Assembly: GCF_016862975.1 (NCBI RefSeq) | Contig: NZ_BONZ01000006.1 | Coordinates: forward strand, 186,001 to 250,000 | Source of the DNA: Rugosimonospora africana | Lineage (GTDB): Bacteria; Actinomycetota; Actinomycetes; Mycobacteriales; Micromonosporaceae | DNA length: 64,000 bases | Direction: 5' to 3' | Shown: positions 2,862 to 55,597 of the stretch, piece after piece | Layout: every line of letters starts with the position of its first letter | Position numbering within the stretch: the first letter of the stretch is position 1 | Notes under the pieces: model-generated | The model's input: the letters and a program-made list of their open reading frames with translations, nothing else | What the model was told of the DNA's origin: nothing | Databases searched by the model: none | Position numbers and translations under genes: made by a program

Positions 2862-4045
2862 ACTCCCGGATCCGGCTGGCCGACCTGTTGCCGCTCGGCA
2901 CGATCGGGCTGCGCAGCCGGCGCGGGCGGGCCGCACTGTCCATGCTGGGCGTCACGATCGGCATCGCGGCGCTGGTCGCGGTGCTCGGCATCACCCGGTC
3001 CAGCCAGTCCGATCTGCTGGGGCGGATCGACCGGCTGGGCACCAACCTGCTGACCGTGGTGAACGGGCACACCATCGGCGGGGACGAGGCCGAGTTGCCC
3101 AGCACCGCCGGGGCGACCATCGCCCGTACCGCCGGTGTCGTGTCCGTCGCGCCCACCGCCGAGCTGTCCTCGGTACCCGTGTACCGGTCGGATCGGATCC
3201 CCAGCTACCGCGGCGGTGGGCTGTCGGTACGGGCCTGTGACGGCCAGCTGATGTCCACACTGGACGGTCACCTGTTGCGCGGGACCTTCTTCGACGCGGC
3301 GACCGTGAACTACCCGGCGACCGTGCTCGGGTACACGGCCGCGCAGACCCTCGGGATCACCGACCTGTCCGGCACGCCGCGGGTGTTCCTGGGCGGCACC
3401 TGGTTCACGGTCATCGGCATCCTGGCGCCGTCCGAGCTGGCGCCGGAGGTGGACCACTCGGCGCTGATCGGGTTCCCGGTGGCCGCGGCTGACTTCGGGT
3501 ACGACGGGCACCCGAGCCGGGTGTACGTACGCGCCGACACCGCCCGTACCGAGGAGGTGTCGGGCCTGCTGGCCCGGGCGACCGACCCGGAGCACCCGGA
3601 GCAGGTCACGGTCAGCCGGCCATCGGACGCGCTGTCGGCCCGGCTCGCCGTCTCCGGTGCGGCCACCACTCTGTACCTGGGACTCGGCACGGTCGCGCTG
3701 CTGGTCGGCGGCATCGGCATCGCCAATGTGATGGTGATCTCAGTGCTCGAACGGCGGCACGAGATCGGCCTGCGTCGGGCGCTGGGCGCGGCCCGCCGGC
3801 ACGTGGCGGCCCAGTTCCTGGTCGAGTCGCTGCTGCTCGGGGCGGCCGGCGGGGTGGCCGGGGTGGCGGTCGGCGCGTGGATCACGTACGGGCTGGCGAA
3901 CCAGCGCGGCTGGCAGCCGCTGATCCCACCGACGGCGGTGGGAGCCGGGCTGCTGGCCGCGGTGGTGATCGGTGCCGTCGCCGGCCTCTACCCGGCGGCC
4001 CGGGCGGCCCGGCTGTCGCCCACCGAAGCGCTGCGTACGGTTTGA
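2858..4045 (+). CDS. ABC exporter permease, MacB/FtsX-like
   Basis: A 395-residue permease beginning at the ATG that overlaps the ATPase stop. An N-terminal membrane segment lies at about residues 24-45 ([20 protein letters not shown]), a large extracytoplasmic domain follows, and a cluster of three membrane segments is at about 265-385. The FtsX-type signature [14 protein letters not shown] lies between the second and third segments. The C-terminus ends with the [15 protein letters not shown] motif usual in MacB permeases. With the ATPase and adaptor it should form a mechanotransmission-type exporter of peptides, lipids or antibiotics; the substrate cannot be told. It is the last gene of the operon. 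Confidence 0.94.
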
Positions 4046-4250: not shown

Positions 4251-5249
4251 ATGACCTCTACCGTGCCGGTGCGGCGCCTCGATCGACTGGACCCGCACCA
4301 GGTCGGCGAGGTACTGGAACTGACCCGTGCGGCGGGCGACGCCGACGGTGCGCACCCGCTGTCCGAGCACGTGATGCTGCACGTCCGCCACGGTGGCGAC
4401 GAACCCGCCGAGCACCTCGTCATCCGGGTCGACGGCCGGCTCGTCGGGTACGCGCACGTGGACACCACGGACGCGATCGAGGGAGCCAGCGCGGAACTGG
4501 TGGTACACCCGATGTACCGCCGGCATGGGCTCGGCCGCGCCCTGGTCGCGGCGGCGACCGCCGCGGCGACCGAGCATGACCCGACCGGCCGGCTGCGGCT
4601 GTGGGCGCACGGTGACCACCCCTCCGCCACCGTTCTCGCGCTGTCGATGGGATTCGAGCGGCACCGGGTGCTGTGGCAGATGCGCCGGTCGCTGTACGCG
4701 CCGGTCGAGGCGCCCCGGCTACCGGCGGGCGTGCGGATCCGGGCGTTCCAGCCGGGTGAGGACGACACCCGCTGGGTCGAACTGAATGCGCGGGCCTTCG
4801 CGCACCACCCCGACCAGGGCAAATGGACGCTGAAGGACCTGCGGGTACGGATAGCCGAGCCGTGGTTCGACCCGGCCGGCTTCCTGCTGGCCGAGCGCGA
4901 GCCGGGCCCGGCCGGTGGAGCCGGCGACGACCGGCCCGACCCGGCCGGCGACCGGTCGGTCCTGGGCTTCCACTGGACCAAGGTGCACGGCGCGCTGCGC
5001 GACGAGGGCACGGACATGCACCAGCACGACCCGATCGGCGAGGTGTACGTGCTGGGTGTCGACCCTTCCGCGCAGGGGCTCGGCCTGGGCACCGCGCTGA
5101 CCCTGGCCGGCCTGCGGTACCTGCGGGGACGCGGCCTCGACCAGGCCATGCTGTACGTCGACGAGAGCGACGCGGCGGCGGTCCACCTGTACCAGAAGCT
5201 CGGCTTCGCGCGGTGGTCGACGGACGTCAGCTTCCGGCGCCAGGTCTGA
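4251..5249 (+). CDS. mshD: Mycothiol synthase
   Basis: A 332-residue protein with two tandem GNAT acetyltransferase folds, the layout of MshD, which acetylates Cys-GlcN-Ins with acetyl-CoA in the last step of mycothiol synthesis. The N-terminal GNAT has an acetyl-CoA loop at about residues 85-100 (VHPMYRRHGLGRALV); the C-terminal, catalytic GNAT has VLGVDPSAQGLGLGTALT at about 265-282 and ends with the LYQKLGFARW motif. The family-typical FHWTKVH segment is present near residue 242. The frame is open upstream through the repeat region; this ATG fits the family N-terminus. mshD next to phosphate-transport genes is also seen in M. tuberculosis (Rv0819 beside phoT). Confidence 0.94.
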   Translation: MTSTVPVRRLDRLDPHQVGEVLELTRAAGDADGAHPLSEHVMLHVRHGGDEPAEHLVIRVDGRLVGYAHVDTTDAIEGASAELVVHPMYRRHGLGRALVAAATAAATEHDPTGRLRLWAHGDHPSATVLALSMGFERHRVLWQMRRSLYAPVEAPRLPAGVRIRAFQPGEDDTRWVELNARAFAHHPDQGKWTLKDLRVRIAEPWFDPAGFLLAEREPGPAGGAGDDRPDPAGDRSVLGFHWTKVHGALRDEGTDMHQHDPIGEVYVLGVDPSAQGLGLGTALTLAGLRYLRGRGLDQAMLYVDESDAAAVHLYQKLGFARWSTDVSFRRQV

Positions 5250-5365
5250 GAGCGCCGGGTCCGAGAACGCCGCTCCCGAGAACACCGCGTCTGAGAGCGC
5301 CGGGTCCGAGAACGCCGCGTCTGAGAGCGCCGCTTCCGAGAACGCCGGGCCTGAGAGTGCCCCGG
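5246..5365. repeat. 15-bp minisatellite, eight copies
   Basis: Eight tandem copies of a 15-bp unit of the form (c/c)(t/c)gagaRcRccgnnn begin at the mshD stop codon. Two subtypes alternate irregularly (ctgagagcgccgggt-like and ccgagaacgccgcgt-like), which suggests expansion by slippage or unequal crossing-over. The array precedes the pst promoter region by about 170 bp. Confidence 0.9.
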
Positions 5366-9983: not shown

Positions 9984-10694
9984 TCAGAACACGAGCCGGC
10001 CCTCGACCAGTCGTGGGCGCACCGGGTTGACCGCATCCCGGTGCGCCGCCGCGGCCATGGCCTCGTCGATCCCGCCGTGCCCGGCCAGCTGATCGAGCGT
10101 GGTCCGGGTCGGAGGCAACATCGGCAGATCCTGGGTCTCGGCGGGTGCCACCCAGAGCGACAGTGACGCCTCCGTACCGATGTGCCGGGTCAGTTGTCCC
10201 TCCGGCAGCCGGGCGAGGAAGAAGTACGTGTCATACCGGCGGGGTTCGAATTCCGGCGTGATCCAGCGGCTCCACGCCGCCAGCAGGTCGCCGCGCAGCA
10301 CCAGCCCCCGGTCCCGGAGCAGCTCGGCAAAGCCGATCTCGCGCGACTCGACCGCTCGGCGGGCATCCTCCCAGTCCACCGTCGACACGTCGGCGAGCAC
10401 GGAGTCCGCGGACGGCCCCGCGAGCAGCACGCCGGTCTCCTCGAACACCTCGCGCACGGCCGCGCAGACGACTGCCCGGGCCTGGTCGGCGGGCAGCCCG
10501 AGCCGCTCGGGCGGGGCCACCCAGTCCAGCTCGGTGGCCGCGTCGCGGGGGTCGACGGTACCGCCGGGGAACGCGTACATCCCGCCGGCGAAGGCCATGC
10601 TGGCCGCCCGGCGGACCAGATAGACCTCGAACGGGGAGCGGAGCAACAGGACGGTCGCGGCGGGCCGGGGACGCGCGACGGACTCGGGACTCAC
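9984..10694 (-). CDS. Nudix hydrolase, NUDT19-like split Nudix box
   Basis: A 236-residue protein from a GTG start. The opening strand AATVLLLRS and the GGMYAFPGGTVDPRD segment are typical of Nudix enzymes. The metal-binding REVFEETG helix appears about 50 residues later than in a standard Nudix box, so the box is interrupted by an insertion, as in NUDT19-type CoA/nucleotide diphosphatases. This is seen in the sequence; the substrate (CoA derivative or other nucleoside diphosphate) is inference. It is divergent to the oxidoreductase gene and converges on pstB. Confidence 0.88.
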   Translation of the reverse strand: MSPESVARPRPAATVLLLRSPFEVYLVRRAASMAFAGGMYAFPGGTVDPRDAATELDWVAPPERLGLPADQARAVVCAAVREVFEETGVLLAGPSADSVLADVSTVDWEDARRAVESREIGFAELLRDRGLVLRGDLLAAWSRWITPEFEPRRYDTYFFLARLPEGQLTRHIGTEASLSLWVAPAETQDLPMLPPTRTTLDQLAGHGGIDEAMAAAAHRDAVNPVRPRLVEGRLVF

Positions 10695-10738: not shown

Positions 10739-11833
10739 ATGACCACTCCGGAACGGCCGCTTGACCGCAGCGCCTCGTCCCTCGGCGCCGCTGGCGGCCG
10801 CAACACTCAAGAGCGGCCGCTTGACCGCAGCGCCTCGTCCCTCGGCGCCGCTGGCGGCCGTGGCACCACCCGAATCCGCTGGGGCATCCTGGCCACCGGC
10901 CGTATCGCCAACACCTTCGCCGAGGATCTCGCGCTCCTGCCGGACGCGGAGATCGCCGCCGTCGGCTCCCGTACCCTCGACGCCGCCCGGGGCTTCGCGA
11001 CCCGGCACGGGATCCCCCGCGCGTACGGCTCGTGGGACGAGCTGGCCGCCGATCCGGACATCGACGTGGTCTACGTCGCCAACCCGCACTCCGCTCACCA
11101 CGCGGCGACCCGGCTGATGCTGTCGTCCGGCAAGGCGGTGCTCTGCGAGAAGCCGATCACCCTGGACCTGGCCTCCACGCAGGACCTGGTCACCGTCGCC
11201 AGAGAGAACGGCGTGTTCTTGATGGAGGCGATGTGGATGCGCACGATCCCGGCCATCCGCAAGATCGCCGGCCTGGTGGCCGACGGGGCGCTCGGTGAGG
11301 TGACCGCCGTGTACGCGGACTTCGGGGTCGCCGGGCCGTTCGCGCCGGAACACCGGATGCGCGACCCCGCGTTGGGCGGCGGCGCCCTGCTCGACCTGGG
11401 CATCTACCCGGTCACGTTCGCGCACCTGTTCCTCGGGCCGGCGCAGCGCACCACCGCGCTGGCCACGCTGACCCCGGAAGGCGTCGACGAGAACACCGCG
11501 ATCGTCCTGGGCTATGACAACGGCGCCCTGGCCAGCCTGCACTGCGGGATCGTGGGGGCGTCGCCGAACATCGCCTCGATCGTCGGCGAGACCGGCCGGA
11601 TCGAGCTGCCGGCGCCGTTCTTCCGCCCCGACCGGTTCACCATTCACCGGGGTGAGCACGCCGAGGTCGTGCAGGTGCCGATCCGCGGCAACGGCATGGG
11701 CTACGAAGCCGAAGAGGTCATGCGCTGCCTCCGCGAAGGGCTGACCGAGAGCCCGCTGGTGCCGCTGTCCGCGACCCTGGACGTGATGCGCTGCCTGGAC
11801 GCCGTACGCGCGCAGATCGGCGTCACGTACTAG
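10739..11833 (+). CDS. Gfo/Idh/MocA oxidoreductase with repeat-derived N-terminus
   Basis: About 364 residues. The NAD(P)-binding fold begins with IRWGILATGRIANTF at about residue 44, followed by the EKPITLD motif of the Gfo/Idh/MocA family (about 138) and the C-terminal dehydrogenase domain with GGGALLDLGIYP. It probably oxidises or reduces a sugar, inositol or trans-dihydrodiol. Before the fold, the frame runs through two 60-bp repeat copies that encode ERPLDRSASSLGAAGG twice. No start codon in frame was found between the repeat and the fold, so the repeat is likely translated as an extra ~40 residues. A TTG at 10727 is an alternative start. Confidence 0.88.
   Translation: MTTPERPLDRSASSLGAAGGRNTQERPLDRSASSLGAAGGRGTTRIRWGILATGRIANTFAEDLALLPDAEIAAVGSRTLDAARGFATRHGIPRAYGSWDELAADPDIDVVYVANPHSAHHAATRLMLSSGKAVLCEKPITLDLASTQDLVTVARENGVFLMEAMWMRTIPAIRKIAGLVADGALGEVTAVYADFGVAGPFAPEHRMRDPALGGGALLDLGIYPVTFAHLFLGPAQRTTALATLTPEGVDENTAIVLGYDNGALASLHCGIVGASPNIASIVGETGRIELPAPFFRPDRFTIHRGEHAEVVQVPIRGNGMGYEAEEVMRCLREGLTESPLVPLSATLDVMRCLDAVRAQIGVTY
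10751..10860 (+). repeat. Tandem 60-bp element, family B, inside a coding start
   Basis: Two copies, 10751-10800 and 10811-10860, nearly identical over 50 bp and spaced exactly 60 bp. The ends are complementary (cggccgc ... gcggccg) so each copy can fold. A diverged copy is at 31296-31345, and the core ggccgcttgaccg also occurs in the repeat at 37927-38027. The spacing keeps the reading frame of the oxidoreductase. Confidence 0.88.
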
Positions 11834-30935: not shown

Positions 30936-31367
30936 CTATAGCGGCTGGTGCGCCCCTGGCCGGCAGAAATAGCGGGCGGCCGCGCGCAGCCCGCCGGCCA
31001 CCGCCCACATCGGGGCCCCGGTCACCCAGCCCCGGACCGCGCGCCGCGGCGACCTGGCCGGCCCGGTCTCGCCGGCCGCGACCAGGTAGGCGGCGAACAT
31101 CTCCTCAGCCTGATCGGCGACCAGATGGGCGCGACCGCAATCGTCGCCACCAGGCAGAACCCGGGCGGCGGAATACAGGGTGGCGTGCACATCGCTGCTC
31201 AGCATCGGCCCGTCGCCGACCACCGTTGGCAGGAGGTCGGCGGCCATGGCGAGAAGTCCCGCACCGATCGTCGTCGCGACCGATTCGAGCCCGGAGAGCG
31301 GCCGCTTGACCGCGGCAGCTCGTCCCTCCCCGCCGCTGGCGGCGGATGAATCGGTCGGAACGATCAT
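30936..31367 (-). CDS. Hypothetical protein with repeat-derived N-terminus
   Basis: About 143 residues, family not recognised. The frame fits a repeat copy at its N-terminus (AASGGEGRAAAVKRP, residues ~9-23), then a helical stretch with hydrophobic segments (TIGAGLLAMAADLLPTVVGDG), an acidic helix with two Cys nearby (GGDDCGRAHLVADQAEEMF) and a Trp/Arg-rich end. It lies 10 bp before the ligase gene, so may be part of the NHEJ transcript, and is divergent from the XRE gene. A GTG at 31373 and the ATG at 31367 are both possible starts. Confidence 0.55.
   Translation of the reverse strand: MIVPTDSSAASGGEGRAAAVKRPLSGLESVATTIGAGLLAMAADLLPTVVGDGPMLSSDVHATLYSAARVLPGGDDCGRAHLVADQAEEMFAAYLVAAGETGPARSPRRAVRGWVTGAPMWAVAGGLRAAARYFCRPGAHQPL
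31296..31345. repeat. Single family B repeat copy
   Basis: gagcggccgcttgaccg... and ccgccgctggcggcgg match the 10751-10860 unit over about 50 bp with several substitutions. Here it is read antisense in the small gene, so the same element encodes different residues in the two genes. Confidence 0.75.
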
Positions 31368-31622
31368 GGTCACGCCCGGACTCCTCCCCTGGCCACCGCT
31401 CCAACCACGTCGCTCGTCGGTCCGGCCCAAGGACCGATCCGCGACGCGTGCGTGGCGCCGCTCTCCCGCAGCCGTCGTCATCCGGAACAGCCGACTTCGG
31501 GGAACTCGACGCCGACGCTCCACACAGCATGCACCGACGTCTATTGCGATGCAACTCCCAGATAATCACGTTGCGTCACGAGTCCCTAGCATTCCTCTGC
31601 TACAGATGCGAGACTCAGCGCC

Positions 31623-52792: not shown

Positions 52793-55597
52793 CTAGGTCG
52801 TCTTCTTCGCGGCGGTCTTCTTGGCCGGTGCCGCCTTCTTGGCGGCGGTCTTCTTGGCCGCAGTGGCCTTCTTCGCCGTGGTGGTCTTCTTCGCGGTCGT
52901 GGTCTTGCCCGCGACCGCCTTCTTCTCCGCCGCGGTCTGCTTCTTCGCGGTGGTCTTCTTCGCCGCGGCCTTGGTGGCCTTCTTGCGGGCCGGAGCTGGC
53001 CCCTTGGCCCGCTTCTCGGCCAGCATCTCCGAGCCCTGCTCCACGGACATGGTCTCGGGCGTCTGACCCCGCCGCAGCGAGGCGTTGGTCTCGCCGTCGG
53101 TCACGTACGGCCCGAACCGGCCGTCCTTGATCACCAGCGGCTTGTCCGTCAGCGGGTCGGGGCCCAGCTCGCGCAGCGGCGGCGCGGCCGGCCGGCGCTG
53201 GCGGGTCTTCGGCGCGGCCAGCAGTGCCAGGGCCTCGTCCAGGCTCACCGTGAACAGCTGCGACTCGTCGGCCAGCGACCGGAAGTCGTCGCCCCGCTTC
53301 ACGTACGGCCCATACCGGCCCGCCCCCGCGAACACCTCGGCGCCCCCGGGGTCCTTGCCCAGCAGCCGGGGCAGCGAGAGCAGCTGCAGGGCGTCGGCCA
53401 GCGACACCGCCTCCGGCGACTGATTACGCAGCAGCGAGGCGTTGCGCTCCCCGCTGGACACGTACGGGCCGAACCGACCCGACTTGATCACGACCAGCTC
53501 GCCGGTCTCCGGGTGCTCGCCCAGCTTCCGCTCGCCGCCGCCGCCCAGGAACAGTTCGTCGACCTTCGCCGGACTCAGCTCGTCCGGGGCGATGCCGTCC
53601 GGCAACGACGTCCGATCGTCCTCGCCGGGCTCCTGGCCGGGCACCGTACGCTGCAGGTACGGCCCGTACCGGCCGACCCGCACCACGACGTCCCGCTCGG
53701 AGTCGTCCCGGAACAGCGGGATGGAGTTGACCCCACGGGCGTCGATCTCGCCGAGGTTCTCGGTGACCATCTTCCGCAGGCCACCCGCCCTGGCGATCGA
53801 ACCCTCGTCGCCCACCCCGCCGAAGTAGAACGCGGTCAGGAAGTCCAGCGCCGATGCCTCGCCGTCGGCGATGTCGTCGAGCTCGTTTTCCATCGAGGCG
53901 GTGAACTGGTAGTCCACCAGCCGGGGGAAGTGCCCCTCCAGCAGGTTGGTCACCGCGAACGCGGTGAACGACGGGATCAGCGCCTGACCCCGTTTGAACA
54001 CGTACCCGCGGTCCTGGATGGTGGCCATGATGTTGGCGTACGTCGACGGCCGGCCGATGCCCAACTCCTCCAGCGCCTTGACCAACGACGCCTCCGTGTA
54101 GCGGGCCGGTGGCTGGGTGGTGTGGCCGACCGGGTTGAGCCTGTCGGCGCGCAGCGGCTGATCCTTGACCAGGGTCGGCAGCCGGCGCTCGGCGTCCTCC
54201 GCCTCGGCCTCCTCGTCGTCGCTGGACTCCACGTAGGCGCGCAGGAAGCCGGGGTCGGTGATCGTCTTACCGGTCGCCCCGAAGTCGCACTCCTCGTTGT
54301 TCGTGGAAACGGCCCGGATGCGCACCGACACCGACGAGCCGACCGCGTCGGTCATCTGCGAGGCGATGGTCCGCCGCCAGATCAGCTCGTAGAGCCTGAA
54401 CTCCTCGGTGGACAGCTCGTTCGCCACCTCGCCCGGGGTGCGGAAGGTGTCCCCGGCCGGGCGGATGGCCTCGTGCGCCTCCTGAGCGTTTTTCACCTTG
54501 GACGTGTACCGGCGCGGCTGCGGCGGCACGAACCGGTCGCCGTACAGCTCCTGGACCTGGGCCCGGGCAGCGGTGATGGCCGACTCGGAGAGGTTCACCG
54601 AGTCGGTACGCATATAGGTGATGTAGCCGTTCTCGTACAGGCGCTGTGCCGTACGCATCGTCTGCGCGGAGGAGAACCGCATCTTGCGGGCGGCCTCCTG
54701 CTGCAGCGTGGAGGTGATGAACGGCGGGTAGGGCCGGCGCCGGTACGGCTTCTCCTCGACCCTGACGACCTTGAACGACTGGTTCTCCAGCCGGCCGGCC
54801 AACCCGCGGGCGGCCGCCTCGTCCAGGTGCACCACGTCGCTGCGGGCCCGGCCGGTGGTCGGCTCGAAGTCCCGGCCGGTGGCGATCCGGTCGCCGTCCA
54901 GCGAGATCAGCGTGGCGGAGAAGCCCCGGGGCCCGTCCGCAGGGGCGTCGAGCATCGCGAGGTCGGCGATGATGTCCCAGTACTCCGCCGAGCGGAACGC
55001 CATCCGCTGCTTCTCGCGATCCACCACGATCCGTGTGGCCACCGACTGCACCCGGCCCGCCGACAGCCGTGGCATGACCTTCTTCCACAGCACCGGCGAG
55101 ACCTCGTACCCGTACAGGCGGTCCAAGATCCGCCGGTACTCGTACGCGTTGACCAGGGCGCGGTCGATCTCCCGGGGGCTGGCCACGGCCGCCTGGATCG
55201 CCGGCTTCGTGATCTCGTGGAAGACCATCCGCTTGACCGGGACCTTGGGCTTGATCGTCTCCAGCAGGTGCCAGGCGATGGCCTCGCCCTCGCGGTCCTC
55301 ATCTGTCGCCAGGTAGACCTCGTCCACCTCTTTGGCCAGCTTGGTCAGGCGGGTGATCTGCTGCTTCCGGTCGCTGGAAACCACGTAAAGCGGCGCAAAA
55401 CCGTTGTCGACGTCCACGCCCAGCCGGGCCCACGGCAGCGACTTATACTTCGCTGGCACGTCGGCCGCGTTGCGCGGCAGGTCCCGGACATGGCCCAGGC
55501 TCGCCTCGACCACATACCCGGGGCCTAGGTAACCCGAGATCGTCTTGGCCTTCGCCGGGGACTCGACGATGACCAAGCGCTTAGCGTCGTGCGGCAC
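52793..55597 (-). CDS. topA: DNA topoisomerase I
   Basis: A 934-residue type IA topoisomerase that relaxes negative supercoils. The TOPRIM domain starts with VIVESPAKAKTISGYLG (residue 9 on) and has ATDEDREGEAIAWHL. The catalytic Tyr is in TYMRTDSVNLS (about residue 329). The C-terminal part has four Topo_C repeats (GRYGPYLQR, GRFGPYVSSGERN, GRYGPYVKRG, GRFGPYVTDGETN) but no Cys4 zinc ribbons, as in other actinobacteria. A Lys/Ala/Thr-rich tail of ~70 residues (AKKTTTAKKATAAKKTAAKK) follows. GTG start. Context (delta' and helicase nearby) matches the Rv3646c region. Confidence 0.97.
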   Translation of the reverse strand: MPHDAKRLVIVESPAKAKTISGYLGPGYVVEASLGHVRDLPRNAADVPAKYKSLPWARLGVDVDNGFAPLYVVSSDRKQQITRLTKLAKEVDEVYLATDEDREGEAIAWHLLETIKPKVPVKRMVFHEITKPAIQAAVASPREIDRALVNAYEYRRILDRLYGYEVSPVLWKKVMPRLSAGRVQSVATRIVVDREKQRMAFRSAEYWDIIADLAMLDAPADGPRGFSATLISLDGDRIATGRDFEPTTGRARSDVVHLDEAAARGLAGRLENQSFKVVRVEEKPYRRRPYPPFITSTLQQEAARKMRFSSAQTMRTAQRLYENGYITYMRTDSVNLSESAITAARAQVQELYGDRFVPPQPRRYTSKVKNAQEAHEAIRPAGDTFRTPGEVANELSTEEFRLYELIWRRTIASQMTDAVGSSVSVRIRAVSTNNEECDFGATGKTITDPGFLRAYVESSDDEEAEAEDAERRLPTLVKDQPLRADRLNPVGHTTQPPARYTEASLVKALEELGIGRPSTYANIMATIQDRGYVFKRGQALIPSFTAFAVTNLLEGHFPRLVDYQFTASMENELDDIADGEASALDFLTAFYFGGVGDEGSIARAGGLRKMVTENLGEIDARGVNSIPLFRDDSERDVVVRVGRYGPYLQRTVPGQEPGEDDRTSLPDGIAPDELSPAKVDELFLGGGGERKLGEHPETGELVVIKSGRFGPYVSSGERNASLLRNQSPEAVSLADALQLLSLPRLLGKDPGGAEVFAGAGRYGPYVKRGDDFRSLADESQLFTVSLDEALALLAAPKTRQRRPAAPPLRELGPDPLTDKPLVIKDGRFGPYVTDGETNASLRRGQTPETMSVEQGSEMLAEKRAKGPAPARKKATKAAAKKTTAKKQTAAEKKAVAGKTTTAKKTTTAKKATAAKKTAAKKAAPAKKTAAKKTT

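What the first reader, a model, noticed from the sequence alone, without database searches (positions are those of the whole stretch)
10739..10865. Repeat element translated as the N-terminus of an oxidoreductase
Two 60-bp copies of a dispersed element lie between the only plausible start and the first strand of the NAD-binding fold, in frame, giving ERPLDRSASSLGAAGG twice. This resembles palindromic elements of Rickettsia that insert into genes.
Basis: partly seen in the sequence, partly recalled or inferred. Interest (0 to 1): 0.65.

Follow-up and report, generated by a model that had tools for sequence, protein, structure and literature searches.

The report
Mobile repeat inserted behind start codons
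A tiny palindromic DNA repeat, found about forty times in this actinobacterial genome, has often landed just behind the start codon of unrelated genes and stayed in frame, so that those proteins, this oxidoreductase among them, probably carry an extra front end with no evident use.

Summary
Two 48-nt units (10753-10800, 10813-10860; period 60) lie in frame between ATG 10739 and the Rossmann fold of a Gfo/Idh/MocA oxidoreductase, and no in-frame start follows them. In 79 of 80 fetched relatives the nearest start codon is at most 11 codons before the conserved W; here it is 47.

The repeat is a dispersed family: 57 model matches at E<=0.1 in the 11.1-Mb genome. I examined 39 well-matched arrays. 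Twenty abut a start codon in the gene's orientation, 19 in frame, 15 of those exactly 16 nt behind the start. Eighteen of the 20 starts read NTGA; nine are 4-nt stop/start overlaps. Sequence right of the insert tends to resemble the 15 nt beginning at the start codon, as if that region had been duplicated (15+48=63 nt). Paired changes in two helices indicate a hairpin or matched inverted ends.

Best reading: a non-autonomous palindromic element that inserts at start codons and is tolerated as a disordered N-terminal tail. It combines RPE-like fusion with MIRU-like targeting but is a member of neither on the tests made. Translation is inferred, not shown. No mobilising enzyme was found. Substitutions give no sign of selection on the peptide.

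The parts
10739..11833 (+). Gfo/Idh/MocA-family oxidoreductase gene, 364 aa, carrying the two element units as residues about 5-41
   Evidence: ORF; Pfam PF01408 at residues 46-163, PF22725 and PF02894; relatives lack the N-terminal segment
10739..10753 (+). Left 15 nt beginning with the start codon (ATGACCACTCCGGAA): inferred left copy of the duplicated start-codon region
   Evidence: Register test over 14 sites; at this site alone 6 of 15 positions match, so it is inferred from the family
10753..10800 (+). Element unit 1 (48 nt; terminal helix CGGCCGCT/GGCGGCCG; encodes RPLDRSASSLGAAGG)
   Evidence: R1 match C6:196753-196800, E 4.0e-11; direct repeat
10801..10812 (+). 12-nt spacer between the tandem units
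   Evidence: Sequence; period 60
10813..10860 (+). Element unit 2 (48 nt)
   Evidence: R1 match C6:196813-196860, E 6.5e-11; RNA fold of 10811-10862 -28.1 kcal/mol, z -1.37
10862..10876 (+). Right 15 nt (GGCACCACCCGAATC): inferred remnant of the original start region, the former start codon now GGC
   Evidence: Register test; relatives start about here, e.g. MTDRIRWGIL, MSDRIRWGIL
31298..31345 (+). Second, single copy of the element in the window; antisense within a minus-strand ORF (30936-31523), shortly after a possible ATG of that ORF
   Evidence: R1 match C6:217298-217345; ORF listing

Best explanation
A non-autonomous, 48-nt palindromic mobile element (hairpin or matched inverted ends) has spread to about 40 places in this genome, whose relatives are Micromonosporaceae. 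Its commonest landing place is directly behind a start codon of the form (A/G)TGA(C). Insertion appears to duplicate about 15 nt beginning with the start codon: the upstream copy keeps the ribosome-binding site and the start codon, and the old start, now behind the element, decays. Because 15+48=63 and 12+48=60 are multiples of three and the frame is open, each insertion adds about 20-21 residues to the N-terminus; tandem copies probably arise by recombination between the short repeats. In the window two units were added to an oxidoreductase as a disordered tail. Shown here: the repeats, the frame, the absence from relatives, the fixed 16-nt spacing, the paired changes, the excess of NTGA starts. 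Inferred: that the product is translated and tolerated, that the duplication arose at insertion, and that an unknown enzyme in trans moves the element.
For: Relatives: nearest start codon at most 11 codons before the conserved W in 79 of 80 loci, 47 in the window. Family: 20 of 39 well-matched arrays abut a start codon in gene orientation, 19 in frame, 15 of the 19 at exactly 16 nt; NTGA in 18 of 20 and NTGAC in 14 of 20 against 90 and 41 of 206 called starts (Fisher p 1.4e-4 for 17 of 19 NTGA). Real genes: 16 of 16 scanned ORFs of this type have Pfam domains behind the insert. Duplication: at the 63-nt register 6.79 of 15 positions match on average over 14 sites, against 3.14-4.21 at seven other registers; own pairs beat shuffled pairs (6 of 2000 shuffles as high). 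Pooled local similarity of the flanks of all 39: 0 of 1000 shuffles as high. Start choice: 15 of 19 upstream starts have an SD-like word of 4 nt or more against 11.7% of 14-nt windows; 0 of the 8 genes with a start codon right behind the insert has one there. Hairpin/ends: 7 of 15 pairs change on both sides, covariation score reached in 0 of 500 shuffles. Tail: residues 1-42 have pLDDT under 50, the rest folds well.
Against: No proteomics or expression data; all translation is inferred. The window gene has only a 3-nt SD-like word. My gene caller put the start at the upstream codon in only 10 of the 19 in-frame cases and inside or behind the insert in 9, which may only mean that the repeat does not look like host coding DNA. 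The set of start-type arrays was settled by hand after viewing the data. The inferred duplication is weak at many single sites (window 6 of 15; two sites 3 of 15); with 26-nt flanks the start-type sites are not significant (87 of 1000) and with 16-nt flanks the other sites are not (146 of 1000). Hairpin energy alone is not unusual (z -1.37 and -1.63). No close relative with an empty site is held (no second genome of its genus appeared). No mobilising enzyme was found: one Y1 transposase gene, no element near it. In genome G069 a related element with the same ends sits at a start in 1 of 10 loci examined, so start targeting is not general to the wider group.
Confidence: 0.78

Rival explanations
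1. No targeting: the element inserts anywhere and only insertions in harmless places survive; just behind the start codon, in frame, is one such place.
For: The other 19 arrays are intergenic, at gene ends or inside genes, in both orientations, and the related element of G069 is mostly inside genes or at gene ends. An N-terminal tail is easily tolerated.
Against: Survival alone would spread insertions over 13, 16, 19, 22... nt; 15 of 19 lie at exactly 16 (P about 5e-10 under eight equal choices, a test chosen after seeing the data). It does not explain the NTGA excess.
Confidence: 0.15
2. The element itself carries the start codon: a mobile start-codon cassette of about 63 nt (ATGAC + 11 nt + hairpin) that lands in front of old starts.
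For: A 63-nt unit with ATGAC at its head occurs twice in tandem at the L005/L095 site; NTGAC in 14 of 20.
Against: The nucleotides between start and hairpin differ from copy to copy, and none of the 19 other arrays has ATG or GTG exactly 16 nt before the core. In L093, L095 and L118 these nucleotides match the gene's own sequence right of the insert (13, 10 and 10 of 15).
Confidence: 0.1
3. A functional N-terminal signal or regulatory RNA hairpin kept by selection in a set of co-regulated genes.
For: Paired changes in the helices; an encoded hairpin next to start codons could tune translation.
Against: The genes are unrelated (tRNA synthetase, ABC, SDR, response regulator, GH43). In 16 start-type units matched end to end, substitutions fall 18/12/10 on codon positions 1/2/3, no third-position excess. 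Predicted disorder. Other copies are intergenic or antisense.
Confidence: 0.07
4. Mis-annotated start: translation begins behind the repeats, and the repeats are leader DNA.
For: The authors of PMC3733652 warn of this for REPs at protein N-termini (passage). Eight of 19 genes have an in-frame ATG or GTG right behind the insert, and the home-made caller preferred a start inside or behind the insert in 9 of 19.
Against: In the window no ATG, GTG or TTG follows the repeats before the fold. 0 of those 8 starts has an SD-like word in front of it, while 15 of 19 upstream starts do (chance 11.7%).
Confidence: 0.08

Closest known systems
MIRU (mycobacterial interspersed repetitive units)
   Same: Short (40-100 bp) repeats dispersed at 41 places in an actinobacterium, partly in tandem (passage of PMC2734929); said to be mobile and to insert at start codons with -4 nt spacing (passage of PMC12548453). 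Nine of 20 start-type arrays here sit at 4-nt stop/start overlaps. At L125 the element makes a minicistron ending in the ATGA of the real gene (a DUF1028 protein), the MIRU arrangement.
   Different: Here the element is in frame with what follows in 19 of 20 cases rather than forming a separate coupled ORF, and it has dyad symmetry (that MIRUs lack it is recalled from Supply 1997, not read). No model match in 344 other genomes of the class (strict filters).
RPE (Rickettsia palindromic elements)
   Same: Palindromic repeat with an open frame, read as part of unrelated proteins (passages of PMC10969869 and PMC2229807); proteins with RPE-1 at the NH2 terminus are said to be expressed (passage of PMC3733652).
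   Different: 48 nt against 105-146 bp; concentrated at start codons; different phylum.
REP elements with RAYT transposases
   Same: Short hairpins, sometimes at protein N-termini (passages of PMC3733652).
   Different: No GTAG or CGTC at either end of the unit; the only Y1 transposase gene found has no element beside it.
Other bacterial MITE-like repeats (e.g. YPAL/RU-2, RU-1)
   Same: Inverted repeats, target duplications of variable length (3-26 bp for YPAL; passage of PMC2229807), open frames fused to genes (passages of PMC2759123).
   Different: Fixed spacing behind start codons; no autonomous partner with the same ends found.

Membership tests
RPE | Palindromic repeat of about 105-150 bp | tested here: not met
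   Unit 48 nt, tandem period 60 or 63
RPE | Dyad symmetry / terminal inverted repeats | tested here: met
   Two helices with paired changes; energy alone not exceptional
RPE | In frame inside genes whose relatives lack it | tested here: met
   Relatives compared for the window gene only; other genes by Pfam domains behind the insert
RPE | Protein with the insert is made and works | not testable with these tools
   Needs proteomics and enzyme assay
RPE | Sequence similarity to an RPE family | not tested
   No RPE sequence was fetched
MIRU | 40-100 bp repeat dispersed at tens of sites, partly in tandem | tested here: met
   57 matches, 39 arrays examined
MIRU | Inserts at start codons, with -4 nt coupling | tested here: met
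   20 of 39 arrays at starts, 9 of these at 4-nt overlaps
MIRU | Element ORF separate from, and coupled to, the next gene | tested here: not met
   In frame in 19 of 20; only L125 has the MIRU arrangement
MIRU | Sequence homology to MIRU | tested here: inconclusive
   No R1 match in 344 other class genomes (strict filters, genomes unnamed); no MIRU sequence fetched
REP/RAYT | Cognate RAYT gene flanked by the repeat | tested here: not met
   One PF01797 match, no element in its 3.4-kb locus
MITE | Terminal inverted repeats | tested here: met
MITE | Target-site duplication | tested here: inconclusive
   Significant over the set, weak at many single sites
MITE | Autonomous transposon with the same ends | tested here: inconclusive
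   No convincing pair of ends 120-10,000 nt apart among 59 left and 36 right ends; draft genome in 219 contigs, so one could be missed

The most novel reading that the evidence does not exclude
A mobile element that recognises translation starts themselves: its machinery cuts at the start codon in an (A/G)TGAC context and duplicates about five codons, so that every insertion recreates a working start and adds an in-frame tag. This would be a start-codon-targeted, self-tolerating way of spreading through coding genes, and a source of N-terminal extensions even in genes such as a tRNA synthetase.
Probability: 0.4. Interest if true: 0.8.

Novelty: new variant of a known kind. Interest (0 to 1): 0.6.

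Why it matters
It joins two known habits that I did not see together in the passages read: MIRU-like insertion at start codons and RPE-like fusion into proteins. If the targeting is real, it shows how a selfish repeat can invade a gene-dense genome at little cost, and how protein N-termini grow. It also warns annotators: 19 reading frames here, one of them a class I tRNA synthetase, begin with repeat DNA. Nine searches of the open-access library listed no title or abstract opening that describes this element; only the top of each listing was seen, and subscription papers are mostly not held.

Tried and rejected
Autonomous partner: left ends with up to 1 mismatch (59 places, backward-pattern control 37) and exact right ends (36 places, control 29) were paired by script. 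Same-strand pairs 120-10,000 nt apart: one internal to an expanded array (C64, 155 nt), two joining separate known arrays on C95 (about 5.6 kb, interior not searched for a transposase), and C2:22005/23733, whose ends lie in two coding genes, the second a Peptidase_S15 protein. RAYT: rejected. Plasmids, phages, viral contigs: no match. Rfam at gathering scores: only a tRNA in the window. Selection on the peptide: no third-position excess. Energy-only argument for the hairpin: dropped.

Relatives of the element: R1 at E<=0.001 in 7 of 300 family genomes, own included, and, at E<=0.0001, in 1 of 345 in the class, the own one; both with strict filters. The ends pattern: 7 of 354 family genomes, own included; five have a single match, G069 has 16; one control match in another genome. 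The five single matches were looked at only as flanks.

How the start-type set was made: one search listed every in-frame ATG or GTG 10-30 nt before the core in 39 arrays, 21 arrays in all. I dropped L110 and L114 (no gene follows in that frame) and added L125 (18 nt, out of frame), giving 20. In the flank test the automatic split differed (18 start-type including L110; L097, L104 and L125 among the 21 others). One search used 14 of the 15 arrays with 16-nt spacing (not L104). Four of the 20 (L097, L104, L112, L125) had no fused ORF scanned with Pfam; L112's ORF ends after 69 aa. The 39 arrays are those of 47 with a unit at E<1e-4 over at least 37 model positions, identical flanks once; the window copy at 31298 was not in the set. 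Decayed copies in L252 and L102 were seen, not counted. The structure model used 34 of the 81 sequences it could have had, and its low N-terminal confidence may partly reflect that relatives lack this stretch.

Full report
What is there. From ATG 10739 the gene reads MTTPERPLDRSASSLGAAGGRNTQERPLDRSASSLGAAGGRGTTRIRWGIL.... Two 57-nt copies, 95% identical, lie 60 nt apart. Pfam places the NAD-binding domain PF01408 at residues 46-163. The upstream gene is a divergent NUDIX-domain gene beginning at 10694, so this is not a stop/start overlap site.

Is the segment extra? Thirty loci came from whole genomes, one of them the gene itself, and 80 from a named collection, the best 80 of 553 (names include Micromonospora, Dactylosporangium, Phytohabitans, Planosporangium, Streptosporangium and Streptomyces; that most are Micromonosporaceae is recalled taxonomy). 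A first motif scan found the motif in 64 of 109 loci, 63 of which have a start within 15 codons. A second scan, anchored on the alignment, covered the 80 named loci: the nearest start codon is at most 11 codons before the conserved W in 79 and at 16 in one; in the window it is 47. Several relatives have a stop just upstream and cannot be longer. The usual beginning, such as MTDRIRWGIL, corresponds to GTTRIRWGIL here, with GGC where the start would be.

A dispersed family. blastn in the own genome gave 45 matches, a 34-nt pattern with up to 3 mismatches 34 (backward control 0), and a covariance model of 37 units 57 matches at E<=0.1. I fetched 40 stretches around them, found 66 hits in 47 arrays and kept 39 arrays with a good unit.

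Where the copies sit. Twenty of 39 arrays lie just behind a start codon in the gene's orientation; 19 are in frame; the spacing from start to core is 16 nt in 15 of these 19 and 13, 19, 22 and 25 in the others. The 20th (L125, 18 nt) reads out of frame and ends in a TGA overlapping the ATG of a DUF1028 gene, the arrangement described for MIRUs. Nine of the 20 lie at 4-nt stop/start overlaps. The other 19 arrays are intergenic, inside genes or near gene ends, partly antisense. Two antisense copies extend C-termini: of a phosphoglycerate kinase whose Pfam domain ends complete at residue 385 of 416, and of a NifU_N-domain protein. Random placement would give about 0.2% in-frame start-type insertions; survival could inflate that figure, but the fixed 16 nt and the NTGA excess (17 of 19 against 90 of 206, p 1.4e-4) argue for targeting. 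These tests were framed after seeing the data.

The genes are real. All 16 start-type ORFs scanned carry Pfam domains behind the insert: amidohydrolase, ABC permease, DHDPS, AP_endonuc_2 (just over its cut-off), LUD/Fer4, GH43, short-chain dehydrogenase, ABC exporter, class I tRNA synthetase, AAA_5, two ABC ATPases, AAA_3, AAA_10, response regulator, and this oxidoreductase.

Which start is used. Fifteen of 19 upstream starts have an SD-like word of at least 4 nt in the 14 nt examined, against 11.7% of 14-nt windows of the same stretches. In the window it is only GGA. Eight of the 19 have an in-frame ATG or GTG right behind the insert, and none of these 8 has an SD-like word. Against this, the home-made gene caller chose the upstream start in 10 of 19 and a start inside or behind the insert in 9. 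The caution that REPs at N-termini may be leader DNA (passages of PMC3733652) is therefore answered for the window gene, where no later start codon exists, and only in part for the others.

Duplication. For 14 sites with 16-nt spacing, the 15 nt from the start codon were compared with the 15 nt at eight offsets behind the core. Only the offset equal to a 63-nt insertion stands out: 6.79 matches against 3.14-4.21 elsewhere. Shuffled pairs at that offset reach 5.66 on average, because right flanks in general look like ATGACC, and 6 of 2000 shuffles reach the observed value. The best cases are L093 (13 of 15), L095 and L118 (10 of 15); two have 3. With local alignment over all 39 arrays, 0 of 1000 shuffles are as high at flank widths 16, 20 and 26; for start-type sites 4, 10 and 87 of 1000; for the others 146, 2 and 1. 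A duplication is thus likely as a rule, but eroded.

Structure. In the alignment of 37 units (36 distinct) the outer helix has 4 of 6 pairs changed on both sides and the two-helix structure 7 of 15, with a covariation score not reached in 500 shuffles and lower in all six slid versions. Single-strand energies are only slightly better than shuffles. The paired changes may reflect a hairpin or matching ends needed by a transposase; the data do not separate these.

Relatives of the element. Seven of 300 family genomes have R1 matches at E<=0.001, the own one included. G069, of another genus, has 16 copies with the same ends and mostly a different middle. In 10 loci examined it is at a start in one (L241: tandem units in front of the LacI domain, which begins at residue 46), otherwise inside genes, at gene ends or between genes. 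So a wider group of palindromic elements exists, and the strong start preference belongs to the version in the window genome.

The protein. AlphaFold2 with 33 relatives gives mean pLDDT 87.6; residues 1-42 are under 50 and the first strand begins at 46. A disordered tail would explain tolerance. In 16 start-type units the substitutions give no sign of selection on the peptide.

Literature. Only passages were read: PMC10969869 and PMC2229807 on RPEs, PMC3733652 on REPs in proteins, PMC12548453, PMC2734929, PMC3635867 and PMC4213456 on MIRUs, and PMC2759123 on enterobacterial RU fusions. Supply 1997 is recalled, not read.

Conclusion. It works like an RPE in being a palindrome read as protein, and like a MIRU in where it lands. 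It is a member of neither on the tests made. I rate it a new variant of a known kind.

Noticed in passing
window 31298-31345: A single copy in reverse orientation inside a minus-strand ORF (30936-31523), shortly after a possible start; the flanks GACCGATTC/GAATCGGTC extend the palindrome.
   Followed up: partly
L014, L019, L021, L022, L099, L106, L122 (own genome): Copies embedded in a larger repeat whose ends, in L014 and L019, read like inverted AGGCCCTGTCCTG; some have 27-nt internal tandem expansions (L021, L099), and contigs C63 and C64 break in or near it. It may be a MITE that carries the small element along.
   Followed up: no
L108 (C66:2530-2577) and L109 (C66:23180-23227): Antisense copies at the 3' ends of a phosphoglycerate kinase gene and a NifU_N-domain (SufU-like, name recalled) gene, apparently adding about 20-40 C-terminal residues.
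   Followed up: yes
L125 (C27:213461) and L228 (genome G069): DUF1028 genes in two different genera carry the element or its relative at different places: at the start in one, inside the gene, splitting the Pfam match, in the other.
   Followed up: partly
L252 about 2863-2893; L102 about 3010-3049: Truncated or decayed copies behind an ATG (16 nt in L252), suggesting that more eroded start insertions exist.
   Followed up: no
L248 5278-5457 (contig C5): A 56-nt tandem array whose units contain GCCGCTTGACCG.
   Followed up: no
window 5237-5361, 2715-2822, 52796-52972: Tandem repeats with periods mostly of multiples of three, apparently unrelated to the element.
   Followed up: no
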